Shown here: piece after piece, positions 650 through 40,900 of the stretch | How the letters are laid out: each line of letters starts with the position of its first letter | Numbering within the stretch: the stretch's first letter is position 1 | Assembly (NCBI GenBank): GCA_005885555.1 | Contig: VAWN01000023.1 | Location: 346,675-410,674 of the forward strand | Source: Actinomycetota bacterium | GTDB taxonomy: Bacteria; Actinomycetota; Actinomycetes; Mycobacteriales; Micromonosporaceae | DNA length: 64,000 bases | Direction: 5' to 3' | Made by a program: the position numbers and the translations under genes | The notes under the pieces: model-generated | Told to the model about the DNA's origin: nothing | Databases searched by the model: none | What the model saw: only the letters and a program-made list of their open reading frames with translations

Positions 650-685
650 GGCTACCCCTCGTCCCCGCAACCATCCCCGTACCCG

Positions 686-7012: not shown

Positions 7013-7018
7013 CGCGGA

Positions 7019-9178: not shown

Positions 9179-9212
9179 CCATGACCCCTTCGAGTCCATG
9201 ACCCCTTCGAGC
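9179..9212. repeat. 17-bp tandem duplication containing an RBS and ATG
   Basis: Two exact adjacent copies of TCCATGACCCCTTCGAG (plus strand). On the minus strand each copy reads CTCGAAGGGGTCATGGA, that is, a Shine-Dalgarno-like AAGGGG with an ATG two bases later. Because 17 is not a multiple of three, the two ATGs lie in different frames; the copy nearest the gene places its AAGGGG at good distance from the ATG at 9178. The duplication sits directly at the start of the ASST-like gene. Confidence 0.9.
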
Positions 9213-9214
9213 AT

Positions 9215-19600: not shown

Positions 19601-19691
19601 CGAGGTTGGACACGCCCCGGTCCGGGGCCATCGCCTGCAACAGCCAGAGGGCCTCTTCGGCCGCAGTGAGTTCGGACGCCCTGCCGGTCAC
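16605..19691 (-). CDS. NRPS, C-A-T module (cassette 1)
   Basis: 1028 residues from GTG 19691, chosen because AGGAGG lies 9 bp upstream; the frame stays open to 19754. The C domain (about 1-430) has the full HHLVADG motif. The adenylation domain (about 440-950) has TSGSTGQPKGV, YGPTETTIW, TGDVASW and the A10 lysine in THNGKIDVS. The carrier (about 960-1028) has AGGNSLLAL. There is no thioesterase or epimerase. The hand-read pocket is about D-I-L-T-L-G-V-I-W-K, close to the pattern often assigned to glycine in actinomycetes, but not identical. The protein is a paralogue of the NRPS at 25942, with the same layout and near-identical A4-A5 region (FDISALEL, CGGEPL, YGPTETTIW). It sits divergent from the PKS at 19864 and probably supplies that PKS with an aminoacyl or acyl-aminoacyl chain. 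Confidence 0.92.
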   Translation of the reverse strand: MTGRASELTAAEEALWLLQAMAPDRGVSNLGLSLRVPTVVAPGIVRRVMAWLVDRHPELSVAFPVVDAVPHRLQLPGGNGPAVCAAAVADPQELDAALRRLVQAPFDLEQGPLIRAGVFTLPSGATTIGLAVHHLVADGSALRVLAEETLAACASFADRQLPPDLPAPQASRSGTTIAARSVQYWRDYVRDYQASGARLDCTREIGPQPRLTAEHLVRRLSPAARSAVATLRRSLRATEHIVLLSAYHAALVRHGAAADLVVGVMVSNRSPQERWSVGSAVTTVPSRATVTAATSFRSLVREVRDATVRGLEHAHVPYELLLHNDETYAAADAGAWRSRLFRHLFNFRLSDSVAIRTDSGVAIEEVHSGFSQFDLELTVEKRGDDLLATIGYSTEAHDADFARAFLDRLEVILTTAAADPELPVAGYDIRSAADRALVRAANDTARTPSPGTVLDRVVARAAAAPQAVAVVERDGRTSYGRLLHAAEAMRSRLVAAGVVPGDVVGLTAGRSARTVAAVLGIWAAGAAYVPLDPGHPLARLRFQVTELGCPVLVDCGGLPAELASTRTVLAAPDPRDTVSSAEPAVLAHRTALHDLAYVIYTSGSTGQPKGVSITHGNLANVVDHFAGLLRAGPEFTTTWLTTFAFDISALELMLPLTVGGRVVVVPDEVRTEPARLLDLVDRYAVTMLQATPTTWRLVAPQARDRLRGRTLLCGGEPLLPTLAGQLLDTGARVFNVYGPTETTIWSTARELSRSAPDDVGVGRPIANTRVEVLDPGGRPLPPFVRGELCIAGAGVAAGYWQRPELTARRFPTHPDLGASYLTGDVASWRADGSLELFGRQDRQVKLRGHRIELAEIENVLTQDPLVRAAAVELRGDGPDAEAYLVAFVQCPRDRVREVWERVSAVLPAYSVPERIVAVDALPTTHNGKIDVSGLSAWPAGENADTAPDRAAVGGPTDDLPDQLVAIWRALLGRSAVDDSTNFFLAGGNSLLALRLLAEVTKLTDAPITLMSVFRAPTPRRMAALIEAR

Positions 19692-19754
19692 CGGAAGCAC
19701 CCTCCTGTTTCCGCTAGCACCGATCACCTTCAGACAGCCGGCCGGGCCGGACAA

Positions 19755-25769: not shown

Positions 25770-25805
25770 GGCTTCGAGTGTGCGAGAGCCCGGCCGGTCC
25801 CGGCC

Positions 25806-25825
25806 TGTCACAAGAAGTGGTGACG
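25806..25825. promoter_or_regulatory. Candidate operator, TGTCAC-N8-GTGACG
   Basis: A dyad with perfect GTCAC/GTGAC arms and an 8-bp spacer, the same geometry as the elements at 9388 and 47479. It lies in the gap between the divergent thioesterase (start 25769) and the C-A-T NRPS (about 25942), so it could serve both. Confidence 0.4.
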
Positions 25826-25941: not shown

Positions 25942-28900
25942 GTGGGGCTGACGGTGCCGGCCGTGACCACGACACCCGCCCCCCTCCCGGAGCCGGAGGT
26001 ACCACTTCGCCCGCTCGGCCGTCGTGAACACGCGTTCTGGATCCTGTCGCAGCTGGCTCCCGGGTCGGGCGTGTCCCACCTGACGGTCGCGTTCCGCACC
26101 GTCGGCACCCTGCGCTGGTGGCCGCTGCACGCCGCCGCCAACCACCTCCTGTACCGCCACCCCGCGCTGCGCACGCGGTACCCCCAGGAGGCCGGCGTCC
26201 CGTTGCGGCACCTGAGCGCGGCGACCGACGTCCAGCTCCTGCTCGACACCCGGGCCGTCGCGGAGCGGGACGTCGAGGCCGTCGTGGCGCAGCTCGCGCG
26301 GCACCCCTTCGACCTCGCGACCGAGCTGCCGCTGCGGGTCGCGCTGCTCGACGTCGACACCGGCGGAAGCGTCGTGGTCCTGTCGACCCACCACATCGTC
26401 AGCGACGCGGCGTCGCTGACCGTCCTGGTCCGGGAGCTTTCCGCCGGCTACGACGCGGTCGCCGCGGGGGATCCGGTACCGGCGGCGCTCGCCGACCCGC
26501 TGCCCCTTCGCGACGAACCGGAGGTACCCGCGGACGACCTGGGATTCTGGCGCGAGCAGCTGCGCGACGTCGATCCCGCGGCGATGGTGCTGAGCTGGGC
26601 GAGGCCCAGCCCGGTGAACCCGACGTTCGCCGGCGGTACGGTCACCCGGCGGCTGTCGCCGGACGCGGCGCGCGCCGTCGACGAGCTACGACGGCAGCTG
26701 CGGCTCACCGAGAACCTGGTGCTGCTCACCGGGTACCACCTCCTGCTGTTCCGGCACGGCGCCGGGCCCGACATGGTCGTCGGGGTACCGGTGACCGTGC
26801 GCAAGGACGGCGACGCGGGGATCGGTCTGGGGATCAGCACCCTGCCGCTGCGGCTGCGGGTCGACCGGGCGCTCGGCTTCCGGCAGCTCGCCCGCCAGGT
26901 GCGCGACGCCTTCCTGGCCGGGGTGATGCACTCCGGGGCTTCCGCGGAGGCCCTGCTCGCCGAACTCGGCCACCGGTCGGCGGACTGGCGGGCACCGCTG
27001 TTCCGGCACCTGTTCAACTACCGCCCCTGGGACGAGTCCGACGTGCGGATCGCCGGTGAGAAGCCGACCTTCCTCGACGTGCTGCGGGCGGAGAGCCGGC
27101 TGGACATCGAGCTGTCGGTCATCGGCGGTACCGGTCCCGGCACGCTCGTCGCGACCTACAGCGCCGAGGTCCACGACCGCGAGGACGTCGAGGCGCTGCT
27201 GGAGCGCCTGGAGCAGTTGCTGATCGAGGCCGCGGCCGACGTGGACCGGCCGGTCGGGCTGCTGTCGCTGTGCTCGGCCGCGGACCGGGCCGTCCTCGCC
27301 CGGGCCAACGACACCGCGACCGGCCCGCGCCGGGTCGGTACCGTCCCGGAGATGATCATGGCGGTCGCCCGCGCCCGACCGGACGCGGTCGCGCTGGCGG
27401 GGGAGTGCGGCAGCCTGACCTACCGCCAGCTCGTCGCGCGCGGCGGGCAGGTGGCGCGGGCCCTGGGGCGGGCCGGCGTGGGTACCGGCGACGTCGTCGG
27501 GCTGGCGCTCGGCCGCACGACCGCGATGGTCGCCTCGATGCTCGGCGTCTGGGGAGTCGGGGCCGCCTACCTTCCGCTGGATCCCGACCAGCCCCCGGAA
27601 CGCCTGCGCTATCTGGTCGAGGACGCCGGCGCGCGGGCCGTCATCGTCGGCAGCGGGGACGCCGGATGGGCGGCGGGCCGTCCGGTACTGCGGTGGCTGG
27701 ACCTGGAACCGGCGGACCGGCCGCCGGACGGGCCCCTGGCCGTGGTGCCGGACCGGGGCGCCGCGCGCGCCGACGAGGCCGCCTACGTCATCTACACGTC
27801 GGGATCCACCGGCCGGCCCAAGGGCGTGGCGGTCAGCCACGGGAGCCTGGCGAACGTGGTGCTCTCGTTCGCCGACCTGCTGGGTACGACGGAGCGGGAC
27901 CCGGTCCTGTGGTCGACGACGGTGACCTTCGACATCTCCGCGCTGGAGCTGTTCCTGCCGCTGGTGCGCGGTGGACGCGTGGTCGTCGCCGCGGAGCGGC
28001 ACGGCCTGGACGTCGTCGACCTGATCACCGGCCAGGACGTCCACGTCGTCCAGGGCACGCCCACCTTCTGGCGGGCGGTGCTCCCCGAGGCCGCCGGTGC
28101 GCTGGCCGGCCGCACCGTCCTGTGCGGCGGGGAGCCGCTGGCCGCCGAGCTCGCCAGGGACCTGAAGCGCACCGGATGCCGGCTGTTCAACGCCTACGGG
28201 CCGACCGAGACCACGATCTGGTCGACGGTCGCCGAGGTACCGGACGAGCCGGCCGGGCCGGTGTCGGTCGGCGCTCCGCTGGCGAACACGCAGGTGTTCA
28301 TCGTCGACGGCCACGGTGTGGAGCTGCCGCGCGGGATACCGGGAGAGCTGTGCATCGCCGGCGCCGGGGTGGCGATCGGCTACCTGGGCCGTCCCGACCT
28401 CACGGCGCAACGGTTCGGCACCCACCCGGCCTTCGGCCGCTTCTACCGGACCGGGGACGTGGCCCGGTGGCGCCACGACGGTGCCCTGGAACTGCTCGGC
28501 AGGCAGGACCGGCAGGTCAAGCTCCGCGGCCACCGCATCGAGCTGGGTGAGGTGGAGTCGGTGCTGCGCGAGGCCGACGGCGTGACGGACGCGGTCGCCG
28601 TCGTCACCGGCGACCGGCAGGGACAGGGGCGGTTGCACGCCTTCGTCCGGGTCGGGCCCGGCGTGGCGGTTCCGCAGCTGCCGGAGCGGTTGTGGCGGTA
28701 CCTGCGCGACCGCCTGCCCGACTACAGCCTGCCATCCGGTATCGCGGTGCTCGACGCGTTCCCGGTCACGCCCAACGGGAAGACCGACCACCGTGCCCTG
28801 GCGGAGCGGGTGGCGGCCGCGGACCACCCGGGCGTGCCGGCGCCACCCGAGGACGACGGCGACCTGACGGAGCTCACCACGGCACTGGTCGACCTGTGGC

Positions 28901-29103
28901 GGGAGGCTCTGGTCCGGCCCGGCCTCGGCGCCGACGACAACTTCTTCCTGCACGGGGGCCAGTCGCTGCTGGCTCTCGGTCTGCTGGGACGGGTGCGGGC
29001 GCTGGTGGGGCGCGAGGTACCGGTACGGGCGATCTTCGACCACCCGACGGCGCGCCAGCTGGCGCGGGCCCTGAGCGCGGGGGACCGCCATGTCGTGGCC
29101 TGA
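25942..29103 (+). CDS. NRPS, C-A-T module (cassette 2)
   Basis: Up to 1053 residues; GTG starts at 25942, 25954 and 25963 are in frame, and GGTGGGG favours 25954. The C domain (about 20-440) has THHIVSDA: His and Asp are kept and Gly is replaced by Ala. The adenylation domain (about 450-960) has TSGSTGRPKGV, YGPTETTIW, TGDVARW and the A10 lysine in TPNGKTDHR. The carrier (about 970-1045) has GGQSLLAL. The hand-read pocket is about D-I-L-T-L-G-A-I-W-K, one position from its paralogue at 16605 and close to glycine-type codes. It is the first gene of a six-gene run in which each gene overlaps or nearly touches the next (thioesterase, carrier, LanB-like, PKS, NRPS). No release domain is present. 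Confidence 0.92.
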   Translation: MGLTVPAVTTTPAPLPEPEVPLRPLGRREHAFWILSQLAPGSGVSHLTVAFRTVGTLRWWPLHAAANHLLYRHPALRTRYPQEAGVPLRHLSAATDVQLLLDTRAVAERDVEAVVAQLARHPFDLATELPLRVALLDVDTGGSVVVLSTHHIVSDAASLTVLVRELSAGYDAVAAGDPVPAALADPLPLRDEPEVPADDLGFWREQLRDVDPAAMVLSWARPSPVNPTFAGGTVTRRLSPDAARAVDELRRQLRLTENLVLLTGYHLLLFRHGAGPDMVVGVPVTVRKDGDAGIGLGISTLPLRLRVDRALGFRQLARQVRDAFLAGVMHSGASAEALLAELGHRSADWRAPLFRHLFNYRPWDESDVRIAGEKPTFLDVLRAESRLDIELSVIGGTGPGTLVATYSAEVHDREDVEALLERLEQLLIEAAADVDRPVGLLSLCSAADRAVLARANDTATGPRRVGTVPEMIMAVARARPDAVALAGECGSLTYRQLVARGGQVARALGRAGVGTGDVVGLALGRTTAMVASMLGVWGVGAAYLPLDPDQPPERLRYLVEDAGARAVIVGSGDAGWAAGRPVLRWLDLEPADRPPDGPLAVVPDRGAARADEAAYVIYTSGSTGRPKGVAVSHGSLANVVLSFADLLGTTERDPVLWSTTVTFDISALELFLPLVRGGRVVVAAERHGLDVVDLITGQDVHVVQGTPTFWRAVLPEAAGALAGRTVLCGGEPLAAELARDLKRTGCRLFNAYGPTETTIWSTVAEVPDEPAGPVSVGAPLANTQVFIVDGHGVELPRGIPGELCIAGAGVAIGYLGRPDLTAQRFGTHPAFGRFYRTGDVARWRHDGALELLGRQDRQVKLRGHRIELGEVESVLREADGVTDAVAVVTGDRQGQGRLHAFVRVGPGVAVPQLPERLWRYLRDRLPDYSLPSGIAVLDAFPVTPNGKTDHRALAERVAAADHPGVPAPPEDDGDLTELTTALVDLWREALVRPGLGADDNFFLHGGQSLLALGLLGRVRALVGREVPVRAIFDHPTARQLARALSAGDRHVVA

Positions 29104-29878
29104 CGCGCGGGGTGGCCCGGCCCGCTTCGTCGCCGTCGAGCGGCGCGTGCGGCCCTGCGCCCGGCTCTTCTTCTTCCCGCACGCCGGGGGCGGGCCCTCG
29201 GCCGGCTCGGTCCTGCGTGACCTGCTGCCGCCGCACATCGAGCCGTGGGTGGTCAGCCTGCCGGGGCGCCAGGGGCGGCAGGACGAACCCCCGGCCACCG
29301 ACCTCGACAGTGTCGTGGCCGACCTGGCCGGCGCGCTGGCCGGGTTCGAGGACCTGCCGCACGCGCTGTTCGGGTACTGTGCCGGGGCGCTGCCGGCCCT
29401 GCTGGTCGCCCGCGAAAGCCGGCCCGCCCGGCTGTTCGTCGGGTCGTTCGCCGCGCCCGACGTCGCGTCGATCCCGCGGCGGCTGCACCTGCTGCCGCAC
29501 GACGCGTTCTGGACGGCGGTCCTCGACCAGGGCGGCATACCGCCGCAGCTGGCCCGGCACGAGGAGCTGCGCGCGGTGTTCGAGCCGGTGCTGCGGCAGG
29601 ACTTCGCGCTCTACGCCGGGTACCGGCACCGCGCGGCGCCGCCGATGGACGTGCCGGTCACCGTGCTCGTCGGTCGCGACGACCCGCACCTGGGACGGGG
29701 CGCCGTGCTGGGCTGGCGCAGGCAGAGCCGGTACCCGCTGGACCTGTCCGAGCTGGCCGCCGGGCACTGGCTGCTGGAAGCGGGCGCGGGCGAGCTGGTC
29801 GCGACGATCGCGGACAGGATGGGCGCGGACCTGGACCACGGCCGCCAGCGCGCGATCGCGTCGAGGACGGGCACATGA
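29090..29878 (+). CDS. Type II thioesterase, Cys nucleophile (cassette 2)
   Basis: 262 residues. Thioesterase features are FFPHAGGG near residue 27, VSLPGRQGR, the elbow FGYCAGA with Cys97 in place of Ser, Asp in GRDDPHL and His in AAGHWLL. It starts inside the NRPS gene (14-bp overlap) and ends in ATGA with the carrier gene, so all three should be made together. It is a paralogue of the thioesterase at 25023: both share the FPGRQ/LPGRQ and APDVA-PRxLH stretches. Likely substrates are acyl chains on the neighbouring carriers. Editing, transfer and release cannot be told apart from sequence. Confidence 0.9.
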   Translation: MSWPDARGGPARFVAVERRVRPCARLFFFPHAGGGPSAGSVLRDLLPPHIEPWVVSLPGRQGRQDEPPATDLDSVVADLAGALAGFEDLPHALFGYCAGALPALLVARESRPARLFVGSFAAPDVASIPRRLHLLPHDAFWTAVLDQGGIPPQLARHEELRAVFEPVLRQDFALYAGYRHRAAPPMDVPVTVLVGRDDPHLGRGAVLGWRRQSRYPLDLSELAAGHWLLEAGAGELVATIADRMGADLDHGRQRAIASRTGT

Positions 29879-30240
29879 GCACGCCCGGGATCGTCGGGCG
29901 GTTCGCCGACGCGGTGACGCGCAAGCTCGGCCGGCAGCTCGGGCCGGACGAGAACTTCTTCGACGCGGGGCTGGACTCGGTGACCCTGGAGGCCCTGCAC
30001 GGGCAGGTGACCGTCGGCGCGGCCGGGCGGTACCCGATCACGGATCTGTTCGCCCACCCCAACCTGCGGGCGCTCGCCCGGCGCTGGAGCGACAGCGCCC
30101 GCCGCGACGACAGCACCCACCGCGACGACGGCGGGGATGCCACACCGGCGGTGACCCGGCAGCCGAGGCGTGCCTCCGCCGGCGCCGGGCAGCTCGGGCG
30201 GCGGCGCCGCGAGCTACGCAGCGGCGGTGACGGATCGTGA
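29875..30240 (+). CDS. Free-standing carrier protein with basic tail (cassette 2)
   Basis: 121 residues. The carrier core is residues 1-75, with ENFFDAGLDSVTLEALHG holding the phosphopantetheine Ser (about residue 29). The last 45 residues are disordered and rich in Arg, Ser and Gly, which may be a docking or interaction tail. It overlaps the thioesterase stop by ATGA and lies 13 bp before the LanB-like gene. The GLDS motif is canonical here, unlike GFSS in the cassette 1 carrier. It is the most likely carrier substrate for the LanB-like protein next door, by position only. Confidence 0.88.
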   Translation: MSTPGIVGRFADAVTRKLGRQLGPDENFFDAGLDSVTLEALHGQVTVGAAGRYPITDLFAHPNLRALARRWSDSARRDDSTHRDDGGDATPAVTRQPRRASAGAGQLGRRRRELRSGGDGS

Positions 30241-30253
30241 TGCGGGAGGCGAC

Positions 30254-32602
30254 ATGACCGGGCAACGCGGCCGCATGACCGGCGTCCTGTCCCGCGACGT
30301 CCGCGACGACGTCGTCCGCCTGGACGGCGGCTGGCGGCTGTGGCGGGTGGCCGCGCTGCGCAGCGCCGGACTGCCGTTCGGGGTTGTGCAGGAGCTGGCG
30401 GTACCGGCGCTCCTCGACCAACCCGCGGGATCCGACCGGGACCGGGCGATCCGCGCCGCCCGTACCGCCCAGTTCGACCGGCTGATCCGCAACGAGGTGC
30501 TGCGCGAGGCGCTGGCGTGGCAGAACCCGGCGCTGGCCGACAGCTGGCCGCGTCACTACGCCGACCGGCTCGCCGCCGGTGGCGAGCCGCACCTGGCGAA
30601 CCGCGCCTACCGGGAGGTCGTCCTGGCCCGTTACGCCCAGCGGTACTGCGCCCGGAACGAGTCCATCGGGTTCTTCGGCGCCGTCGCCTGGGCCCGGCTG
30701 GTCGACGCGGACTGCGGCCTGCGGTACAGCGGGGCCGGCGGGGTGCGCCGGCGCACCAGTTTCCTGGAGACCTGGGCGGCGGCCGCGGTGGCGCAGGCGC
30801 TGGAGCGCACCCCCGGGGTCTTCGACCTGCTGCCGGTCCGCCTGCACGCCGCCTGCAGCGTGGCCGGCGGCATGGTACGGGAACCGCGCCGTCCCCCCGT
30901 GCGGTACAGCGGGCTGGCCGGCGCCGTCCTGACCGCGGTGGACGGCGTGCGTACCGTGGGCGCCGTCCTGGCCCACGCCGCGGCGGCCACCGGCGACGAC
31001 GCCGACGAGGTCCGCGCCGAGCTGCTGCGGCTGCGCGACCGCGGGGTGCTGCGCATCGGGTTCCGCGTCCCGCACCACGAGCGGCCGGAGCTGCTGCTGC
31101 GCGGGCAGATCGAGCGGCTGCCCGATCCGTCGGTGCGCGACGGGCTGCTCGCCGCGCTCGACGGGGTGGCCGCGGCCGCCACCGCCGCGGCCGACGCCCG
31201 CGGCCCGGCGGCGGTCACCACCGCGCTCGGGGAGGTGTCGCGCAGCCTGGTTGCCGCCGGCTGCACCGCGGAGTCGACCGGGCGGCGCGCATCGCACGGC
31301 CGCACACCGGTGTACCTGGACTGCCGTCGTGACGTCGACGTGACGCTCGGGGCGGATCTCATCGACGGCCTCGCCACCCCGCTCGGGGTGCTGCTCGACA
31401 GCGCGCGTTGGCTGGCCGCCGAGGTGGCCGACGCGGTGGAGGCCGAACTGCGGCGCTCCTGGCGCTGGCTGCTGACCCGGCGCGACGAGGTGACCCTGGC
31501 CGATCTGCAGTTCGCGGCCGGCGACGTGCTGGCCACCGGTGGGCAGGCGGTTCGGGAGGTCCAGGAGGATTTGCAGCTGCGCTGGTCGGAGATCATCTCG
31601 GCCGGCGCGACGGCGCCGCTGCACCTGCGCGGGGATCGGGTACGCGCCATGGCCGACGCGTTGTTCCCCAGCCCCGGCCCGCTGCGCTGGGCGGCGAGCC
31701 GGCAGCACAGTCCGGACCTGCTGCTGGGCAGGACGGCCGACGGGGCGACCTGCTGGGTACTGGGCGAGCTGCACGTGGCGATGAACACGCTGGAGAGCCG
31801 CCTGTTCCGCACCCAGTGCGACGATCCGGCGGAGCTGGTCGAGTCGACCGCCCGCGACATGAGCCGGGGTCGGGTGGTGCCGGTGTACCCGCGGCACGCG
31901 GCCGGGGCCACCGCACGGACCAGCCCGCCGACCGCGCTCGACCCGCCGGGCCGGTACCGCTACTGGTCCTACGACGCCGACGACGGTCGCGCCGAGGGTG
32001 CGGTCAGCGTGCCGGCCACCGCGGTGACGGTGCACGAGGTGGACGGCCGGCTCATCGGCCGGGCCGAGGGGCACGGCTGGAGCGCGCCGGTGCTGGAGTT
32101 CTTCGGCGAGTTCCTCAGCGCGGTCACGGTGAACCTGTTCACGCTGCGCCCCCGGGCACCGCACCTGTACCGGGTACTGATCGACGACCTCGTCATCTGC
32201 CGGGAGAGCTGGAGCTTCCCGGCGGGCGAGGTGCCGGTACCGGTACGGCCGGGCGGGGACGCCGGGTATCAGCGTCTGCGCGACTGGGGCCGCGCCGCCG
32301 GCATGCCCCGGCACGTCTTCGTGCGCACGCCCGGGGAGCGCAAGCCGTACTACGTGGACTTCGCGGCACCGCTGCTGCTGGCCAACCTCGCCCGGGCGGT
32401 GCGCCGGGCCGCGGAGGCCGACCCGCAGGCGGTGATCGACGTGGTCGAGATGCTGCCGAGCCCCGACCAGCTGTGGCTGACCGATGCCGCCGGCCACCGG
32501 TACACCTCCGAGTTCCGCATGGTCGCCGTCGACGCGCTGGAGCCGGCGGAGGTGGTCACCACCGTGGGCGTCCCCACCGCAGAAAGCCAGGTTGCGCAAT
32601 GA
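30254..32602 (+). CDS. LanB-like lantibiotic dehydratase N-terminal (tRNA-dependent glutamylation-domain) protein
   Basis: 782 residues from ATG 30254, with GGGAGG upstream. The protein matches the N-terminal glutamylation domain of class I lanthipeptide dehydratases (LanB): RYAQRYCARNESIGFFG (about 130-146) parallels the RPTPFGLF region of LanB proteins, and the C-terminal RHVFVRTPGERKPYYVDFAA, EMLPSPDQLWL and HRYTSEFRMVAVD are typical. The separate elimination domain (SpaB_C type, about 300 residues) is absent; size and content fit split LanB glutamyl transferases and PEARL-type peptide aminoacyl-tRNA ligases. Those enzymes esterify Ser/Thr with glutamate, or extend peptide ends, using aminoacyl-tRNA. 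No precursor peptide is seen nearby; instead it is coupled to a carrier protein, and its stop overlaps the PKS start (ATGA). It may use aminoacyl-tRNA on a carrier-bound intermediate. That role is inference. Confidence 0.75.
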   Translation: MTGQRGRMTGVLSRDVRDDVVRLDGGWRLWRVAALRSAGLPFGVVQELAVPALLDQPAGSDRDRAIRAARTAQFDRLIRNEVLREALAWQNPALADSWPRHYADRLAAGGEPHLANRAYREVVLARYAQRYCARNESIGFFGAVAWARLVDADCGLRYSGAGGVRRRTSFLETWAAAAVAQALERTPGVFDLLPVRLHAACSVAGGMVREPRRPPVRYSGLAGAVLTAVDGVRTVGAVLAHAAAATGDDADEVRAELLRLRDRGVLRIGFRVPHHERPELLLRGQIERLPDPSVRDGLLAALDGVAAAATAAADARGPAAVTTALGEVSRSLVAAGCTAESTGRRASHGRTPVYLDCRRDVDVTLGADLIDGLATPLGVLLDSARWLAAEVADAVEAELRRSWRWLLTRRDEVTLADLQFAAGDVLATGGQAVREVQEDLQLRWSEIISAGATAPLHLRGDRVRAMADALFPSPGPLRWAASRQHSPDLLLGRTADGATCWVLGELHVAMNTLESRLFRTQCDDPAELVESTARDMSRGRVVPVYPRHAAGATARTSPPTALDPPGRYRYWSYDADDGRAEGAVSVPATAVTVHEVDGRLIGRAEGHGWSAPVLEFFGEFLSAVTVNLFTLRPRAPHLYRVLIDDLVICRESWSFPAGEVPVPVRPGGDAGYQRLRDWGRAAGMPRHVFVRTPGERKPYYVDFAAPLLLANLARAVRRAAEADPQAVIDVVEMLPSPDQLWLTDAAGHRYTSEFRMVAVDALEPAEVVTTVGVPTAESQVAQ

Positions 32603-35600
32603 CCAGCCTTGTTGAACCCGTGGCCATCATCGGCTTCGCCGGGAAGTTCCCCGGCGCGGGCGACTGCGCGGCCCTGTGGCGGTTGCTGTCCGAGGGACGC
32701 GAAGGGCTGCGCACCCTCACCGACGAGCAGCTCCTCGCGGCCGGCGTGTCACCCGACACCCTGGCCGCGCCGAACTACGTCCGCGTCAACGGCGACATCG
32801 ACGGGCTGGAGCTGTTCGACGCCCCGTTCTTCCGGATGACGCCGCGGGAGGCGACGATCTGCGACCCGCAGCTGCGGATCTTCCTGGAGACCGCCCACGC
32901 CGCTGTCGAGAACGCCGGCCACGACCCGACCCGGCTCAGCGACGTGGGCGTGTTCGCGGCTACCGGGCACAGCCTGTACATGGACCATCAGCTGCAGGGC
33001 ACCGCGCTGGCCGCCGGGCAGCGCGACCTGCTCGCCGGGGTCTTCAACTATCCGGACTACGTGGCGACGCTGACCTCGTACAAGCTCGACTTCACCGGTC
33101 CCAGCCTGACCGTCCTTACCGCGTGCTCCAGCTCGCTGCTGACGCTGCACCTGGCGATCCAGGCGCTCAACAACGGCGAGTGCGGCATGGCGCTCATCGG
33201 CGGTACCGAGGTCGAGACGTGGGGGCAGGGCTACTTCTGGAACAGCGGCGGCCCGCTGAGCCAGGACGGGCACTGCCGGCCATTCGACGCCCATGCGAGC
33301 GGCACGGTGTTCTCCACGGGGGTGGGCGTCGTCGTCCTCAAGCGCCTGCCGGATGCGATCCGCGACGGCGACACCGTCCACGCCGTCGTGCGCGCCACCG
33401 CGGTCAACAACGACGGCGCCGACAAGGTGGGATTCAGCGCGCCGAGCCTGTCCGGCCAGACCGCGGTGGTGGCCGAGGCGCTGGGCGTGGCCGACGTCGA
33501 GCCGGAGTCGATCGGGTACGTGGAGGCGCACGGTACCGGTACCGCGCTGGGCGACCCGATCGAGTTCGCGGCGCTCACCGAAGCGTTCCGCAGGGCGGCC
33601 GGCGGGCGGGAACTTCCGAACGGGTACTGCGGTCTCGGGTCGGTGAAAAGCAACATCGGGCACCTGGGGCATGCGGCGGGCGTGGTGTCGCTCATCAAGG
33701 TGGCGCAGTGCTTCGGCAACGACCTGCTGCCGGCGACGGTCAACCTCAAGGAGCCGAACCCGGCGCTCGCGCTGGACGGATCCCCGTTCTACCTGCTGAC
33801 CGAACCGCGTCCGTGGCCGCGCATCCCCGGCCGCCCGCGCCGGGCCGCAATCAACTCGCTCGGCTTCGGCGGTACCAACGTGCACGCCGTCCTGGAGGAG
33901 CCGCCGCTGCCCGCGGCCACCCCGGTCGCGCAACGGCCGCGGCTGGTGGTGTGGTCGGCGCGCACCGACGCCGCCGAGCGGGACTACCGCGCCGCCCTCG
34001 CCGACCACCTGCGCGAGTCCGGCGACGGGCAGTTCCCGGCGACGGTGTCCACCCTGCAGGAGGGCCGGACCCGCCACCCGGTGCGGGGGTTCGCGGTGGC
34101 GGCGTCGCGGCCCGAGGCGGTCGACGCCGTCGCGCGCGAGTCGTTCACCGCCCGCACGGTCCGCTCCGCCGGCCCGCGTCCGGTGGCGTTCCTCTTCCCG
34201 GGACAGGGCTCCCAGCACGTCGCCATGGCGGCCGGGCTGTACCGCACCGAACCGACGTTCACCGCCGAGCTGGACGCGGCACTGGACGCGCTGGCGGCGG
34301 CCGGGGCGGACGTCCGGCAGCTGTGGTCGGACGGTACCGAGGACGACCTGCTCGACACCGCGGTGGCCCAGCCGCTGCTGTTCGCCGTCGAGTACGCGCT
34401 GGCGAAGATGGTGCTGCACTGGGGCGTCACGCCGTCGGCCATGCTCGGCCACAGCGTCGGCGAGATGGTGGCGGCGGCGGTGGCGGGGATGCTTCCGCTG
34501 TCGTCGGTGGCGGCGATGGTGGCCGCCCGGGGCCGCGCCATGGCGGCGGCGCCGCCGGGAGCCATGGCCGCGGTGCGCGCCCGCGCGGCCGAACTGGGCG
34601 AGCTTCCCGCGGGCGTCACCGTGGCGGCCGAGAACGGGCCGCACCAGACCGTGGTCGCCGGTGCGGAGGAGGACCTGTCCGGATTCCTGTCGGCCCTGGC
34701 CGCGCGCGGGGTTGCGGCGGCGCGCCTGCGCACGGCGCACGCGTTCCACTCGCCATCGATGTCCGCGTCGGCGCGGGCTTTCGCGGCCGAGGTACCGCAC
34801 CTGACGGCTTCGCCGGCGACGGTACCCGTGATCTCCGCGGCCACCGCCCGTCCGCTGACCGTCGAAGAGGCCGGTACCGCCGGGTTCTGGGTGGCGCAGA
34901 TCTGCGCGCCGGTCCGGTTCGGGGCGGCGCTGGACGAGCTGCTCGGCGACGGCGACTGGCTCCTGGTCGAGGTCGGACCGGGGCGCGCGCTCACCTCGGT
35001 GCTGCGCGGCCACCCCGGCGTGACCGAGGGCCGGCACCAGGTGCTGCCGACCCTGCCGAGGCGGCGGGGACAGGTGGACGACCTGCGGTGCGTCCTGGAG
35101 GCGGCCGGCGCGTTGTGGGCGGAGGGGCACGAGCTCGACTGGGCCGCGCTGCGTCCCGGCGAACCGCTGCGCCGCACGCCCGTCCCCGGGTACCCGTACC
35201 AGCGGCGCGCCTACTGGGCCCGACCCGAGCAGGCGGAGGCCCAGCGGCCGCCGGCGCCTGCTGTGCCGGCACCGGTACCCGACGGTGCGGGCACGGCGTT
35301 CAGCGTGCTGCGCTGGGTGGAACGGCCGGCCCCGCCACCGCCCGCGGGTACCGGAACGGCGCCCGCAGCGGCGCCCGCAGCCGTCCTGCTCCCGCCGGAC
35401 CCGCAGATCGCCTTGCACCTGGTGCTGTGCCTGCAGCAGGCGGGTATGCGGATCGTGCCGCTGCGGGCCGGCGAGCGGTACTCCGACGAGGGGGCCGAGT
35501 TCGTCGTCCGCCCCGGCCGGGCCGAGGACCTGGGCCGGGCGCTGCGGACGATCGCGGCCCGGGGCGGGTCGGCCCCTCGACTGGTACACGCGTGCGGCAT

Positions 35601-37995
35601 CGGGCCGGGGCCCCATGACGTCGATCTGGTCCTGCAGAGCCTCCTCGACCTCGTCCAGCAGGGTTCCCGCGCCTGGCCGTCCGCCGTACCGGAGGTGCTG
35701 GTCCTCGCCGACCGGTCGGTCGACGTCTCCGGCGGCGAGATGGTCGACCCGGTGCGGGCCGGCCTCGGCGCACTGGCGCGTACCCTCGCGCTCGAACTCG
35801 GCGCGGGCTCCTGCCGCCTGGTGGACGTTGGTCCCCGGGTCAGCGAGCCGGAGCTGGTCGCCGAACTGCGCCGCAGCGAGCCCGAACCGGTTGTCGCCCT
35901 GCGGCGGGACCGGCGCTGGATCCCGGTGGAACGTCCGTGCCCTGTCGCGCCGGACGGGACCTCCCCGCTGCGGCGCTCCGGCGTCTACCTCATCACCGGC
36001 GGACTGGGCGGGCTGGGTCTGGAGCTGGCCAAAGGGATCGCCCGTGCGGGACTGCGTCCGCGGCTGGTCCTCCTCGGCCGCCGGGCGCCGGACCAGCCGG
36101 CGGGCCGGGACGCGCCGGCAGCGTCGGGCGACGCCGGCCACCGGGTGCGGGCCGGCCTGGCGGAGCTCGCCGCGCTGGGCGCCGAGGTGCACCCGTTCGG
36201 CGTCGACGTCGCCGACCTGCGCGCCCTGCGCCGCGTCGCCGACACCGTGACGGCGCGGGTCGGGCCGGTGAACGGCATCTTCCACCTCGCCGGGGTACCC
36301 GGTGACGGCATGCTGCTGCTGCGCGACCGGGACCGGTTCGGGGAGGTACTGCGCCCGAAGGTCGCCGGTACCCTGGCCCTGGAAGAGGTCTTCGCCGGCC
36401 GCCCGCCGCTCGACTTCTTCGTCGCCTTCTCCAGCCGGGCGGCGGTCAACGGGTTGGTCGGCAGCGGCGACTACGCCGCGGCCAACGCCTTCCTGGACGC
36501 GTTCGTCGCCACCACGTCCCTGGCGGAAGGCAGGGCGGTGAGCATCGGCTGGCCCTCCTGGAGCGAGGTGGGGATGGCCGCCCGCCCGCCTGCCGACGGC
36601 GCCCCGACCGGCGCGGCGTCCGGTGCCGGCCGCAGCTGGCAGCTGGTCCTGCGCCCCGAGTACCCCTTCCTGGACGAGCACCGGATCGACGGGACGTCGG
36701 TCCTGCCCGGTACCGGCCAGCTCGACCTGCTGGTCCGTGCCCTCACCGAGACGTTCCCGGACACTGCCGGCGCGCCCGTGCGGCTGCGCGAGGTGGTGCT
36801 GCGCCACCCGCTCGTGGTGACCGGACCGCGTCGGGTGACGATCGCGTTCGAGCCCGACGCGAACGGCTGGGCGTTCACGCTGAGCACCCAGGCCACGGAC
36901 GGCGGTGAATCCGTGGTCCACGCGACCGGGCAGGCGTCGGCGGATGCGCCACCGGCGCCCGCCGTCGACCTGGTGTCGATCCGGGAGCGGCTGACCGACC
37001 GGCGCGCCCCCGAACCGATCAACGGACCGCGCCGGCTGTTCACCTTCGGCCCGCGCTGGAACAACGCGACGGAACTGCGGCTGCCGCCCGGCGGCGGCCC
37101 GGAGAAGATGGTCTGCCTGCACCTGCCGGAACAGTTCCGGGAGGACCTGGACCGGCATCCCCTGCACCCGGCCCTGCTCGACACGGCGGTGTCCTCGGCA
37201 CGCGACCCGGAGCGCGACGGCATCCTCCTGCCGTTCATGTACCAGTCCGTGGTCGTCCACGAGCGGTTGCCCGCCACGTTCACCAGCTACATCGTCCGGC
37301 ACCCCGCGCCGGAGGGGCTGATCGTCGCCGATGTCACCCTGGTGGCGGACGACGGCCGGGTGCTGGCGGAGTTCGAGGGCTTCACGATGCGGGTGGCGCA
37401 GCGCAACTACCTGCAGGAGTCCGAGGCGGCCGCCGACCGGGCCCGGCGGGCCGACGCCGGCGACCCCGACCGGTCCGCCGACGAGGGGGTGCCGCCCGAC
37501 ATCGGGGTCCGGCTCACCCTGGAGCTGCTGGCCTCCCGGCCACCGCGCCACGTGCTCGTGCGACCCTTCCGGGCCGGCCGGCCGGTGCCGCTGCCCGCAG
37601 CGCCACGCACCGACGGCTCGTCGTCCATGGACGGCGGCTCGACGCCGGTGGCACCCGTACCGACGCGGCCGGCGGCGACGGCCGAGCAGGCCGCGGCACA
37701 CCCGGGAAGCCCGGCGGGCGCGGGAAGCCCGGCGGGCGCCACTGGAGCCGACGACGTACCGGAGCGGCTGCGCCGGTTGTGGGCCTCGGCGCTCGGGTCG
37801 GACGACATCGGCGAGGGCGAGGACTTCTTCGAGCTCGGCGGCAACTCGCTCAGTGCCATCGACCTGATGGCACGGATCCGGGCCGAGTTCGGGGTGGAGC
37901 TGAACATCGCCCTGCTCTTCGACCACTCCACGCTGGATGGCGTCACCGAGGTCGTGCGCGGCCGCCTGACCGCGGAGCACCGCCGTGGTGGCTGA
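32599..37995 (+). CDS. Type I PKS, KS-AT-KR-DH-ACP (cassette 2)
   Basis: 1798 residues from the ATG that overlaps the LanB-like stop. Ketosynthase (about 1-430): Cys in TACSSS (about 175), EAHGTGT and NIGH all present. Acyltransferase (about 530-840): GQGSQ, GHSVGEM with Ser (about 617) and HAFHS (about 713); HAFH points to malonyl-CoA. The ketoreductase (TGGLGGLG about 1132; FSSRA, YAAAN) comes before the dehydratase (HRIDGTSVLP about 1360; Asp in HPALLD). ACP: LGGNSLSA (about 1751). One round would extend by two carbons and give an alpha,beta-unsaturated acyl chain. It is the closest relative of the PKS at 19864 in the window, and its intact AT could also charge that PKS. The next NRPS starts inside its last codons. 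Confidence 0.94.
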   Translation: MTSLVEPVAIIGFAGKFPGAGDCAALWRLLSEGREGLRTLTDEQLLAAGVSPDTLAAPNYVRVNGDIDGLELFDAPFFRMTPREATICDPQLRIFLETAHAAVENAGHDPTRLSDVGVFAATGHSLYMDHQLQGTALAAGQRDLLAGVFNYPDYVATLTSYKLDFTGPSLTVLTACSSSLLTLHLAIQALNNGECGMALIGGTEVETWGQGYFWNSGGPLSQDGHCRPFDAHASGTVFSTGVGVVVLKRLPDAIRDGDTVHAVVRATAVNNDGADKVGFSAPSLSGQTAVVAEALGVADVEPESIGYVEAHGTGTALGDPIEFAALTEAFRRAAGGRELPNGYCGLGSVKSNIGHLGHAAGVVSLIKVAQCFGNDLLPATVNLKEPNPALALDGSPFYLLTEPRPWPRIPGRPRRAAINSLGFGGTNVHAVLEEPPLPAATPVAQRPRLVVWSARTDAAERDYRAALADHLRESGDGQFPATVSTLQEGRTRHPVRGFAVAASRPEAVDAVARESFTARTVRSAGPRPVAFLFPGQGSQHVAMAAGLYRTEPTFTAELDAALDALAAAGADVRQLWSDGTEDDLLDTAVAQPLLFAVEYALAKMVLHWGVTPSAMLGHSVGEMVAAAVAGMLPLSSVAAMVAARGRAMAAAPPGAMAAVRARAAELGELPAGVTVAAENGPHQTVVAGAEEDLSGFLSALAARGVAAARLRTAHAFHSPSMSASARAFAAEVPHLTASPATVPVISAATARPLTVEEAGTAGFWVAQICAPVRFGAALDELLGDGDWLLVEVGPGRALTSVLRGHPGVTEGRHQVLPTLPRRRGQVDDLRCVLEAAGALWAEGHELDWAALRPGEPLRRTPVPGYPYQRRAYWARPEQAEAQRPPAPAVPAPVPDGAGTAFSVLRWVERPAPPPPAGTGTAPAAAPAAVLLPPDPQIALHLVLCLQQAGMRIVPLRAGERYSDEGAEFVVRPGRAEDLGRALRTIAARGGSAPRLVHACGIGPGPHDVDLVLQSLLDLVQQGSRAWPSAVPEVLVLADRSVDVSGGEMVDPVRAGLGALARTLALELGAGSCRLVDVGPRVSEPELVAELRRSEPEPVVALRRDRRWIPVERPCPVAPDGTSPLRRSGVYLITGGLGGLGLELAKGIARAGLRPRLVLLGRRAPDQPAGRDAPAASGDAGHRVRAGLAELAALGAEVHPFGVDVADLRALRRVADTVTARVGPVNGIFHLAGVPGDGMLLLRDRDRFGEVLRPKVAGTLALEEVFAGRPPLDFFVAFSSRAAVNGLVGSGDYAAANAFLDAFVATTSLAEGRAVSIGWPSWSEVGMAARPPADGAPTGAASGAGRSWQLVLRPEYPFLDEHRIDGTSVLPGTGQLDLLVRALTETFPDTAGAPVRLREVVLRHPLVVTGPRRVTIAFEPDANGWAFTLSTQATDGGESVVHATGQASADAPPAPAVDLVSIRERLTDRRAPEPINGPRRLFTFGPRWNNATELRLPPGGGPEKMVCLHLPEQFREDLDRHPLHPALLDTAVSSARDPERDGILLPFMYQSVVVHERLPATFTSYIVRHPAPEGLIVADVTLVADDGRVLAEFEGFTMRVAQRNYLQESEAAADRARRADAGDPDRSADEGVPPDIGVRLTLELLASRPPRHVLVRPFRAGRPVPLPAAPRTDGSSSMDGGSTPVAPVPTRPAATAEQAAAHPGSPAGAGSPAGATGADDVPERLRRLWASALGSDDIGEGEDFFELGGNSLSAIDLMARIRAEFGVELNIALLFDHSTLDGVTEVVRGRLTAEHRRGG
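37704..37739. repeat. Exact 18-bp tandem repeat in the PKS linker
   Basis: Two identical copies of GGGAAGCCCGGCGGGCGC encode GSPAGAGSPAGA in the linker before the ACP. In frame and probably neutral. Confidence 0.85.
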
Positions 37996-40900
37996 CGACC
38001 ACGACGCTGACGACCGTCACCTGGTGCAGGCGATCTGGTCGGGTCGGCCGCCGGGGCGACCCATCCGCCGGCCGATCGACCGGCTGGTCCACGCGCGCGC
38101 CCAGCTCGACCCGGGGCTGGAAGCGGTCCGCGACGACGGCCGGTCGACCAGCTACGGCGAGCTGTCCGCCGCCGCCATCGCGCTCGCCGGTCGGCTGCAT
38201 GATCTCGGTACCGGCCCGGGCAGCGTGGTGGCCGTGCACGCCCCACCCTCCACCGGGCTGGTCGTCGGGGCGCTCGGGGTGCTGACGGCCGGAGCCGCGT
38301 ACCTGCCGCTTGATGCCGGAGATCCGCCCGAACGGCTGCGTCGGGTCGTCGAGGACGCCGGGGTGCGGGTGGTCGTGGGCGACCGCGCGGACTGGGTACC
38401 CGCCGGGACCGTGGTCGAACCCGTCCCGATCCCGGTACCGGCATCCCCGGCCCGCCTGCCCGGACCCGACCCGTACCCGGACCGGCCGGCCTACGTGATC
38501 TACACCTCGGGCTCCACCGGCCGCCCGAAAGGCGTGGTGTGCCACCACCCGGGTGTCGTCGACCTGGTGGCCGACTTCGTCGCGCGTCGCCCGCTGCCGC
38601 TGGGCAGCCGCTGTTCGATGTGGACGTCACCGGCGTTCGACGTGTCCGTCTACGAGATGTTCTCCGCGCTCCTCGGCGGGACCCTGGTGATCGTGCCCGG
38701 CGCCGTCCGCGTTGACACCGGTGCGGTGCTGGACCTGCTGGCGGCCGAGGAGGTGGCCAGCGCCTATCTGCCGCCGTTCATGCTGCCGGACCTGGCCGAC
38801 CGGGTACGCACCCGGCCCATGCCGCGGCTGCGCCGCCTGCTGGTCGGCGTCGAGCCCATCCCCGAAGGGCTGCTCCGCGACCTCGTCGCGCGGGTACCCG
38901 GGCTGCATGTGATCAACGGGTACGGCCCGACCGAGACGCACGTGTGCGCAACCGCGTACTCGCTCGACGCGTCGTACCGCGACGACGCGGTGGACCCCAA
39001 CCGGCGGACCCCCATCGGCGGGCCGCTGCGGCACACGACCGTGCACGTCCTGCGTCCGGACGGAACTCCGGTCGACGGTGGCGAGACCGGCGAGCTGTAT
39101 GTCGGCGGCGAGGGCGTCGCATACGGGTACCTCGGCGGCGTGCGGGAGACGGCGGCCCGGTTCGTGCCGGACCCGTTCGCCGGTCGGCCGGGTGCCCGCA
39201 TGTACCGGACCGGGGACCATGTCTCGCGGCTCGCCGACGGCAACCTGGTGTTCCACGGCCGCGGCGACGACCAGGTGAAGGTCAACGGCTACCGCGTCGA
39301 GCCGGCCGAGGTGGAGTCCGGTCTGACCCGGCTGCCGGCGGTGGCGAGCGCGGTCGCCCTGCTGCGTCGCTCCGCGGCGGCCACCCGGCTGGAAGCCTTC
39401 GTGACGCTGCGGCCCACGCCGGGGCGCACCGCCCCGACCGGGGCGGACCTGCGCCGGGCGCTGCAGGAGGAGCTGCCGGCGCACCTGGTGCCGGCGACCG
39501 TGCATGTGGTACCGGCACTGCCGACCACCCGCAACGGCAAGCTCGACCGGGCCGCGCTGCGCGCGATCGCGGAGTCCGGCGGGCCGCACGGGTCGGGACG
39601 CGCCCCGCGCGCGGGTACCGAGGAGCAGCTGATCCGGCTCGCGGAGCGGGTTCTGCGCACCGGGCCGGTCGAACCGGACGCCGGCTTCCTCGACTGCGGC
39701 GGTGACTCGATCGCGGCGCTGCGCCTCGCGACCCTCGTCCGACAGGAGCTGCGCCGGCCGGTGAGCATGGCCGAGGTGCTGGACTGCACGACGTTCGGCG
39801 ACCTCGCGGCGCTGCTGGAGTCGCGTGCTGGACCGGACCCGCGTGGTGCACCGGAACCGTCGGCCCCCGAGGCCGCCGCCGCGGTCGACGGGGACCTGCC
39901 GCTGACGCCGTCCCAGCACGGGCTGTGGCTGCTGCACCAGATCTACCCGGACTGCACCGCCTATCACGTCCCGGTGCTCCTGCGGCTGCGCGGCAACCTG
40001 GACCGCGCGGCCCTGTCCGGCGCGCTGCGCGACGTCCTGGTCCGCCACCCGGCGTTGCGCACGAGCTTCCCCGTCGTCGATGGCGAACCCGTGCAACGCC
40101 GGGCCCCGGCCGGGGCGGTACCCGCGTCGATGATCCGGGTACACGACGCGCCGCGGGCGGACGGACAGGAGGCGTTCCTGACCGGGCTCACCCAGCAACG
40201 GTTCGACCTCGCCGCCGGACCGCTGGTGCGTGCCGACCTCGTCCGCCATGCACCGGACGACCACCGGCTGCTGCTGGTCGTGCACCACCTCGTCACGGAC
40301 GGCTGGTCCATGGAGATCCTGCAGCGGGACCTGTGGGCCGCGTACACGGCGCGCGTCACCGGCCGCGCACCGGACTGGCCCGCCCTCGACCCGGGCGTCG
40401 TTGCGCAGCCGGCGCCGGACACCGAGGCGGCGCCGGAGGCGCTTGACTACTGGCGTCGGCAGTTCGCCGAACCGGTACCGGAGCCGGTCCTGCCGCAGCG
40501 GCGGCTGACGGTCGAGCGCACCCGGTTCCCCGGCGCTCGCTTCACGCGGCTGGTGCCCGAGTCGGTGGCACTGCGCCTGGAGCGGGTCGCGCGCCGGGAA
40601 CGGGCGTCCCTGTTCAGCGTCCTCGTCGCCGCGCTCGGGCTGGTGGTGATGCGCTACGGGGACACCGACCGGGTGGTCGTCGGGGTGCCCACCGCCGGCC
40701 GCGAGGTCGCGGGTACCGAGGACGTCGTGGGTTTCTTCAACCGGACCCTCGCGTTGTGCGTGGACCGCCGGGGCGGGCCGGGCGTGCTGGAGTACCTCCG
40801 GCGCACCCACCGCACGCTGGCGGACGCCCTGCGGCACGGTACCGTCCCGTTCGAGCAGGTGGTGGCCGCGGTCTCGCCGCCCGCGCGGAGCACCCGTGCG

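What the first reader, a model, noticed from the sequence alone, without database searches (positions are those of the whole stretch)
30254..32602. LanB-like tRNA-dependent enzyme embedded in a PKS/NRPS operon
A 782-residue relative of the lanthipeptide dehydratase glutamylation domain is translationally coupled to a type I PKS (ATGA overlap) and follows a free carrier protein by 13 bp. No precursor peptide or elimination domain is visible. If it is active, an aminoacyl-tRNA-using enzyme may modify a carrier-bound or PKS intermediate, for example by esterifying a hydroxyl to help dehydration, or by adding an amino acid. I know of no well-described example of this pairing.
Basis: partly seen in the sequence, partly recalled or inferred. 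Interest (0 to 1): 0.85.

Follow-up and report, generated by a model that had tools for sequence, protein, structure and literature searches.

The report
tRNA-using amide ligase in PKS/NRPS cluster
A bacterial antibiotic-type assembly line carries an enzyme related to lantibiotic dehydratases that, by its conserved residues, most likely uses a charged tRNA to add an amino acid to a carboxyl group the assembly line leaves unused; one close precedent was published in 2024, but the partner that would create that free carboxyl group here looks different.

Summary
The gene is real: 30254-32602 encodes 782 aa with PF04738, 13 bp after a free carrier gene and in ATGA overlap with a KS-AT-KR-DH-ACP gene. 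Its AlphaFold model matches only LanB glutamylation enzymes strongly. A described precedent exists: SnaE, a PEARL-like enzyme in an NRPS-PKS cluster, adds Thr to a free carboxylate. And the residues favour ATP-dependent amide ligation over hydroxyl esterification: PEARL ATP-site residues E505 and H507 are present in 73 of 73 sequences (window protein and 72 relatives) and R755 in 68 of 68 covering it, but in 0 of 17 fused dehydratases.
New here: the window's A-T-C-A-T synthetase lacks the ureido-forming motif seen with SnaE; its second adenylation domain has an unusual D-P-R pocket. D-P-R or D-A-R pockets occur in 25 of 47 clusters chosen for LanB and in 0 of 20 LanB-free NRPS regions. From recalled signatures I infer that these domains load Glu/Asp through the side chain, leaving the alpha-carboxylate for the ligase. 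Counter-cases: 12 clusters with LanB fused behind an NRPS module, and 7 others, show neither feature. No substrate, product or added amino acid is shown.

The parts
30254..32602 (+). LanB-like / PEARL-like protein, 782 aa; R36, Y127, R130, D488, E505, H507, E753, R755 are the putative catalytic and tRNA-contact residues; winged-helix (RRE-like) part about 190-270
29875..30240 (+). free carrier protein (T domain, GLDS), 121 aa, 13 bp upstream of the LanB-like gene
32599..37995 (+). type I PKS module KS-AT-KR-DH-ACP, ATGA overlap with the LanB-like gene
37985..43099 (+). NRPS A-T-C-A-T; A1 pocket DVYYLGGVC, A2 pocket DPRHAGLQG (arginine at position 239); C motif VHHLVTDG, not the ureido motif EHHxxHDG
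41282..42688 (+). second adenylation domain with the D-P-R pocket, inferred to activate a side-chain carboxyl
25942..29103 (+). NRPS module C-A-T, pocket DILQLGAIW (Gly-like by recalled code)
29090..29878 (+). stand-alone thioesterase
19864..24780 (+). PKS module KS-KR-DH-ACP with a degenerate AT region
16605..19754 (-). second C-A-T module, pocket DILQLGVIW (Gly-like by recalled code); homologue in the G021 ortholog cluster
14601..15674 (-). luciferase-like monooxygenase, conserved in the G021 (65%) and D. roseum (54%) clusters
43290..44600 (+). cytochrome P450 downstream of the A-T-C-A-T gene

Best explanation
The protein is a PEARL-like amide ligase, not a dehydratase. Proposed pathway: (1) the A-T-C-A-T synthetase couples a first amino acid to a second, Glu- or Asp-like residue that its D-P-R adenylation domain loads through the SIDE-CHAIN carboxyl; (2) the PKS module extends that side-chain carbonyl by a ketide, which KR and DH reduce and dehydrate; (3) the alpha-carboxylate of the residue is therefore left outside thioester chemistry; (4) the LanB-like enzyme phosphorylates this orphan carboxylate with ATP in its ATP-grasp site, an aminoacyl-tRNA attacks with its amino group, and hydrolysis of the tRNA leaves a new amide-linked amino acid. 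Shown: the genes, domains, predicted fold, conserved PEARL residues and the statistical link of D-P-R/D-A-R adenylation domains with LanB genes. Inferred: side-chain activation, identity of the carboxylate, timing (on the carrier or after release), which amino acid is added.
For: Fold: all 11 Foldseek matches with E<=0.001 are LanB enzymes (MibB, MadB, TbtB, NisB, GodF), next the ATP-grasp glutathione synthetases; TbtB Z 20.6 over 640 residues. Residues: D488, E505, H507 in 73 of 73 distinct sequences and E753, R755 in 68 of 68 covering them, with the spacing inside motifs of BhaBCTrp D558/E575/H577 and E813/R815 (PMC11962472; PMC12945691); E505, H507, R755 in 0 of 17 fused dehydratases. Precedent with a like layout A-T-C-A-T / KS-AT / LanB: SnaE (PMC11212132). 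D-P-R or D-A-R pockets in 25 of 47 clusters chosen for LanB (window included) against 0 of 20 LanB-free NRPS regions, Fisher p 1.3e-5. Reciprocal: LanB within 26 kb of 12 of 16 other D-P-R domains against 1 of 13 other adenylation domains, and that one lies in a D-A-R cluster. Within one LanB clade the partner is a ureido C domain in L025 and a D-P-R domain in L103 and in G158 (L062/L205).
Against: Side-chain activation rests on pocket signatures I recall (microcystin iso-Glu and iso-MeAsp modules, ACV synthetase); my text searches found no held paper that prints them. Of 55 LanB clusters with readable adenylation domains, 19 have neither a D-P-R/D-A-R pocket nor a ureido C domain: 12 with LanB fused behind an NRPS module (11 with a Val-like pocket), 4 KS clusters and 3 two-LanB clusters. 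Three D-P-R clusters show no LanB in the 20 kb read (L202-L204). The D. roseum cluster has a PF14028 elimination-domain gene directly before its second LanB, and the window's genome has one such gene on another contig, so glutamylation and elimination in trans are not fully excluded. Clusters are related, so counts are not independent; regions are not length-matched; two of the 15 D-P-R clusters (G077, G158) count only through a stretch fetched because of its D-P-R hit. The relatives were found by peptide patterns, one of which spans E505 and H507; those were found by whole-protein similarity. No SnaE or other PEARL sequence was available to align.
Confidence: 0.55

Rival explanations
1. PEARL-like ligase acting on another carboxylate: the C-terminal carboxylate of a thioesterase-released chain (for example after one of the Gly-like modules), or a side chain. 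The D-P-R domain then activates an ordinary alpha-carboxyl, and its link with LanB reflects co-inheritance.
For: All residue and fold evidence for a PEARL holds equally. A stand-alone thioesterase and two Gly-like C-A-T modules are in the cluster. LanB-thioesterase fusions exist (L195, L196; L112). Fused C-A-T-LanB proteins need some other carboxylate.
Against: Does not explain why D-P-R/D-A-R pockets concentrate in LanB clusters and with LanBs of several clades.
Confidence: 0.25
2. Glutamyl-tRNA-dependent esterification (LanB-type) of a hydroxyl on a carrier-bound intermediate, with elimination in trans or by base, to make an alkene.
For: Closest solved folds are glutamylation domains. D. roseum cluster has a PF14028 gene next to its second LanB. 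Own genome has one PF14028 gene elsewhere.
Against: ATP-grasp residues E505, H507 and R755 kept in every relative that covers them and absent in 17 of 17 fused dehydratases. No PF14028 in the window genes scanned. The PKS modules already carry DH domains. The Val-like residue before most fused LanBs has no hydroxyl.
Confidence: 0.12
3. The protein has lost catalysis and serves only as a docking or carrier-binding factor through its RRE-like winged helix.
For: RRE-like part at about 190-270 is kept although no precursor peptide is seen.
Against: The putative catalytic residues are kept in all of 73 distinct sequences that cover them.
Confidence: 0.05

Closest known systems
SnaE of the threopeptin (sna) cluster, Stackebrandtia nassauensis (PMC11212132; text parts 1-3 of 6 read)
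   Same: LanB-like, no elimination domain, no precursor peptide, in an actinobacterial NRPS-PKS cluster with A-T-C-A-T and one KS-AT module; proposed ATP- and aa-tRNA-dependent amide formation at a carboxylate that thioester chemistry cannot reach
   Different: In sna the free carboxylate arises from a ureido-forming C domain (EHHxxHDG). The window's C motif is VHHLVTDG, its second A domain is of the D-P-R type, and its PKS modules carry KR and DH
PEARLs BhaBCTrp and TglB (PMC11962472, text parts 1-3 of 6 read; PMC12945691, passages)
   Same: Same fold family; ATP-site and CCA-contact residues at matching positions and spacing, mapped from published residue numbers
   Different: They act on a ribosomal scaffold peptide; none is seen here
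Class I LanB dehydratases NisB, MibB, MadB, and split LanB TbtB and GodF (structures)
   Same: Glutamylation-domain fold
   Different: No elimination domain in this protein; keeps E505, H507 and R755, which 17 of 17 fused dehydratases from the same bacterial family lack
Microcystin-type iso-Glu/iso-MeAsp adenylation domains and ACV synthetase module 1 (recalled signatures; delta-carboxyl activation by ACV synthetase seen in passages of PMC7147772)
   Same: Arginine at pocket position 239, by recall
   Different: No sequence comparison was made; substrate of the window's domain untested

Membership tests
Class I lanthipeptide dehydratase (LanB) | glutamylation-domain fold, PF04738 | tested here: met
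Class I lanthipeptide dehydratase (LanB) | elimination domain PF14028 fused or encoded beside it | tested here: not met
   none in P0001 or in window genes scanned; the single copy given for the genome is on another contig
Class I lanthipeptide dehydratase (LanB) | precursor peptide gene nearby | tested here: inconclusive
   LanB abuts its neighbours; the 24.7-25.96 kb gap and 43.1-43.4 kb showed no candidate; no wider small-ORF search
Class I lanthipeptide dehydratase (LanB) | Glu-tRNA-dependent Ser/Thr glutamylation | not testable with these tools
   needs biochemistry
PEARL (peptide aminoacyl-tRNA ligase) | ATP-grasp residues equivalent to BhaBCTrp D558, E575, H577, E813, R815 and R34 | tested here: met
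   D488, E505, H507, E753, R755, R36 conserved; mapping by motif and spacing to published numbers, no PEARL sequence was aligned
PEARL (peptide aminoacyl-tRNA ligase) | tRNA CCA-contact Tyr and Arg (BhaBCTrp Y205, R208) | tested here: met
   Y127 and R130, 73 of 73; mapping by motif and spacing
PEARL (peptide aminoacyl-tRNA ligase) | ribosomal scaffold peptide as substrate | tested here: inconclusive
   none seen; SnaE shows that a PEARL-like enzyme can do without
PEARL (peptide aminoacyl-tRNA ligase) | ATP- and aa-tRNA-dependent amide bond formation | not testable with these tools
   needs biochemistry
SnaE-type NRPS/PKS PEARL-like enzyme | encoded with A-T-C-A-T NRPS and a KS-AT module | tested here: met
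SnaE-type NRPS/PKS PEARL-like enzyme | ureido-forming C domain EHHxxHDG as source of the free carboxylate | tested here: not met
   window motif VHHLVTDG
Side-chain-carboxyl-activating adenylation domain | arginine at position 239 in a D-P-R or D-A-R pocket (recalled signature) | tested here: met
   A2 pocket DPRHAGLQG
Side-chain-carboxyl-activating adenylation domain | adenylation of a gamma- or beta-carboxyl | not testable with these tools
   needs ATP-PPi exchange

The most novel reading that the evidence does not exclude
LanB-like PEARLs are a general 'orphan-carboxylate' extension module of assembly lines. Whenever an assembly line leaves a carboxylate outside thioester chemistry, whether by a ureido C domain (SnaE) or, as here, by an adenylation domain that loads Glu/Asp through its side chain, a LanB-like enzyme adds an amino acid from aminoacyl-tRNA. 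The window's kind joins a polyketide chain to the side chain and a tRNA-derived residue to the alpha-carboxylate of the same amino acid.
Probability: 0.45. Interest if true: 0.78.

Novelty: new variant of a known kind. Interest (0 to 1): 0.62.

Why it matters
About two thousand NRPS/PKS clusters are said to carry such 'lantibiotic dehydratases' (PMC11212132), and I saw one characterised case. If D-P-R/D-A-R adenylation domains mark the residue whose carboxylate the LanB-like enzyme extends, many of these clusters become predictable, and the idea is testable with one adenylation assay and one gene deletion. It would describe a second way of using aminoacyl-tRNA, outside the ribosome, inside polyketide/peptide assembly lines, and a way to branch them.

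Tried and rejected
Ureido chain reversal in the window: rejected, C motif VHHLVTDG. Dehydratase reading: disfavoured by residues. Elimination partner in the cluster: none found; the own-genome PF14028 gene on C76 sits with LuxR, HlyD and ABC genes, and the genome's only PF04738 match is P0001. The 295-aa ORF 24936-25820 (+) has no Pfam match and is probably not a gene; the other strand holds a T domain and a thioesterase-like domain. Fused LanBs as a simple confirmation: 11 of the 12 without a ureido C domain follow a Val-like pocket, which does not fit a side-chain or hydroxyl substrate and is left unexplained.

Literature for the pocket signatures: and passages of PMC6562525, PMC3640908, PMC7147772, PMC13338154, PMC13126170. 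None of the passages prints the codes; PMC7147772 states delta-carboxyl adenylation in ACV synthetase, and PMC13126170 mentions two domains that tether aspartate by its side-chain carboxyl. Passages of PMC9303977 gave no residue data. In the listings (20 of 29, 30 of 148, 15 of 154 and 10 of 69 papers shown) I saw no title or abstract start on LanB-like enzymes paired with such domains; most subscription papers are not held. Direct phmmer of P0001 against PDB sequences gave only weak antibody chains; the 26-sequence profile found TbtB at E 1.6e-10. First hhalign against dehydratases failed because a wrong-frame ORF was in the set; repeated with frames fixed.

Rows dropped and corrections: of 25 PF14028 loci (L064-L088), 17 were used; L072 and seven with short or stand-alone frames were left out. 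The 75 rows held the window protein twice and one D. roseum gene twice; one search recounts on 73 distinct sequences. The carrier-adjacency count (41 of 85) used a faulty list of repeats (one unique locus dropped, some repeats kept); one search replaces it: of 64 distinct LanB genes with their N-terminal part and at least 1,000 nt upstream, 33 have a carrier domain within 700 nt upstream on the same strand. In one search, 8 clusters (L194-L201) had been fetched because of an adenylation domain, so counts are also given without them; 3 clusters had no readable adenylation domain; L094-L113 were picked largely for long LanB frames, which over-represents fusions. LanB clusters span 15-64 kb, background regions 15-20 kb, so the comparison is not length-matched. 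Genome searches scored only a few candidates per genome (5, 7), so absences are not proof. The trees are FastTree, midpoint rooted, no outgroup.
Full report
OBSERVATION. The ORF 30254-32602 (+) gives 782 residues and matches Pfam PF04738 at E 8.8e-26. It starts 13 bp after the stop of a 121-aa carrier protein and its stop overlaps the next start as ATGA. Around it, on the plus strand: KS-KR-DH-ACP (19864-24780), C-A-T (25942-29103), thioesterase (29090-29878), free carrier (29875-30240), LanB-like, KS-AT-KR-DH-ACP (32599-37995), A-T-C-A-T (37985-43099), P450 (43290-44600). It is the only PF04738 match given for its 6.7-Mb genome.

FOLD AND FAMILY. A profile of 26 sequences (the window protein and 25 relatives) reaches TbtB in the PDB at E 1.6e-10. 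The AlphaFold2 model (mean pLDDT 86.8, pTM 0.88) has 11 Foldseek hits at E<=0.001, all from MibB, MadB, TbtB, NisB and GodF; the next are glutathione synthetases, which are ATP-grasp enzymes, at E 6e-3 and above. VIA-align gives TbtB Z 20.6 over 640 residues, rmsd 4.4; ATP-grasp synthetases reach Z up to 7.5, a range that can arise without kinship. Residues about 190-270 resemble the winged-helix RRE/PqqD domains of RiPP enzymes.

CHEMISTRY FROM RESIDUES. Published work on the PEARL BhaBCTrp names D558, E575, E813 and R815 at the ATP/Mg site of a model (the TglB equivalents of D558, E813 and R815 were shown to matter by experiment), R34 near the peptide carboxylate, and Y205 and R208 at the tRNA CCA end (PMC11962472, text parts 1-3 of 6); a review adds H577 (PMC12945691, passages). 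The window protein has D488, E505, H507, E753, R755, R36, Y127 and R130, with the same spacing inside each motif. Among 73 distinct sequences (P0001 and 72 relatives) D488, E505, H507, Y127 and R130 are present in all 73, E753 and R755 in the 68 that cover them, and R36 in the 65 that cover it (which corrects two repeats). In 17 LanB dehydratases with a fused elimination domain from the same bacterial family, aligned by hhalign (probability 97.5), E505, H507 and R755 occur in none; E753 in 16 and an aspartate at 488 in 6. The protein therefore keeps an ATP site that these dehydratases lack, which favours amide ligation over esterification. Limits: the relatives were found by peptide patterns, one of which spans E505/H507 (those were not), and no PEARL sequence was available for direct alignment, so the mapping is by motif and spacing.

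PRECEDENT. Yu and van der Donk (PMC11212132, text parts 1-3 of 6) showed that SnaE, a 'lantibiotic dehydratase' in an NRPS-PKS cluster with A-T-C-A-T and KS-AT-T, is needed for adding Thr to a carboxylate left free by a ureido-forming C domain with motif EHHxxHDG. They count about two thousand NRPS/PKS clusters with such genes.

WHAT DIFFERS HERE. The C domain of the window's A-T-C-A-T has VHHLVTDG, so the ureido route is not indicated. Its second adenylation domain has the pocket DPRHAGLQG (positions 235, 236, 239, 278, 299, 301, 322, 330, 331). Arginine at 239 in a D-P-R or D-A-R pocket is, by my recall, the mark of domains that load Glu or Asp (microcystin) or aminoadipate (ACV synthetase) through the side-chain carboxyl; I could not find the signatures in a held paper. 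If so, the alpha-carboxylate stays free, which is what a PEARL needs.

TEST OF THE LINK. Of 58 LanB clusters, 55 have a readable adenylation domain: 22 have D-P-R, 11 D-A-R, 3 a ureido C domain, 19 none of these. Without the 8 clusters fetched because of an adenylation domain, D-P-R/D-A-R is present in 25 of 47, window included, against 0 of 20 NRPS regions without LanB (Fisher p 1.3e-5). Two of these 25 (G077, G158) count only through an added stretch that was fetched because of its D-P-R hit. Among the 20 LanB clusters with a KS that were not fetched for their adenylation domain, 15 have D-P-R (counted). Starting from the adenylation domain: of the 30 loci given, 17 have D-P-R; of the 16 other than the window, 12 lie within 26 kb of a LanB match, against 1 of 13 with other pockets (p 5e-4), and that one is in a cluster that also has a D-A-R domain. 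The remaining D-P-R cases: G054, G114 and one G074 cluster show a thioesterase / A-T-C-A-T / KS-AT-KR layout like that of G017 and G062, where LanB is fused to the thioesterase, but no LanB in the 20 kb read; G093 has its LanB matches on other contigs of a fragmented assembly. On a FastTree of the LanBs, D-P-R partners occur with LanBs of several separate clades, and in one clade L025 has a ureido C domain while L103 and G158 have D-P-R. Clusters are related, so these are not independent draws, and the regions are not matched in length.

WHAT DOES NOT FIT. In 14 clusters LanB is fused behind an NRPS module; 13 of the 14 pockets just before it are Val-like (DALWLGGTF or close), L104 is DAWFLGATM, and only 2 of the 14 have a ureido C domain. 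Four KS clusters (L101, L102, L105, L113) and three two-LanB clusters (L010, L011, L021) have neither partner in the stretch read. The D. roseum cluster carries a PF14028 gene before its second LanB. Two-LanB clusters carry PALP, ornithine-cyclodeaminase-like or OTCase-like genes, whose link to LanB is unclear. LanB often lies directly after a carrier domain (33 of 64 distinct genes within 700 nt, 13 of these in one ORF), but any gene behind an NRPS or PKS gene would.

MECHANISM. I commit to a PEARL-like ligase that activates a free carboxylate of the chain with ATP and condenses it with an aminoacyl-tRNA, probably the alpha-carboxylate of a side-chain-loaded Glu/Asp-like residue that the adjacent PKS extends. 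Ligase rather than dehydratase: about 0.8. The full pathway as stated: about 0.55. The amino acid added, the first residue (pocket DVYYLGGVC) and the timing are unknown. The corrections made on checking (73 for 75 sequences, 33 of 64 for 41 of 85) do not change these odds.

VERDICT. A new variant of a known kind: same enzyme class and likely chemistry as SnaE, with a different source of the free carboxylate that I did not see described in the listings. The useful result is a predictive rule that one adenylation assay can test.

Noticed in passing
19864-24780 (+): The AT region of this PKS has no GHSxG or GQGSQ motif and no Pfam AT match, while the matching gene in the G021 cluster still gives an AT hit: a decayed acyltransferase beside intact KS, KR, DH and ACP motifs.
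   Followed up: partly
24829-25706 (-): A minus-strand carrier domain and a thioesterase-like domain lie between two plus-strand synthase genes.
   Followed up: partly
14601-15674 (-): A luciferase-like monooxygenase is conserved in two related clusters that also have Gly-like C-A-T modules; by recall such pairs can turn a terminal Gly into an amide (myxothiazol type).
   Followed up: no
1-14217 and L091: A second, mostly minus-strand NRPS/PKS set with an N-terminal acyl-activating-like domain, a free C domain, an M28 peptidase and a PKS runs off the left edge; it may or may not belong to the same pathway.
   Followed up: partly
L061:4518-10784 and similar loci: C-A-T-LanB fusion proteins, mostly with a Val-like pocket, in several genomes of the family; the substrate of the LanB part is unexplained.
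   Followed up: partly
L007, L009, L010, L012: NRPS clusters with two LanB genes also carry PALP (L009, L010, L012), OTCase-like (L007, L009) or ornithine-cyclodeaminase-like (L010) genes, suggesting diaminopropionate-type building blocks.
   Followed up: no
L017:11658-14875: D. roseum cluster: an elimination-domain (PF14028) gene directly before a second LanB gene.
   Followed up: partly
G000:C76:7536-8270 (L090): The only PF14028 gene found in the genome has no LanB gene beside it; neighbours include LuxR, HlyD and ABC transporter genes.
   Followed up: partly
7019-9214 (-): One ORF joins an arylsulfotransferase-like part and a DUF3159 part.
   Followed up: no
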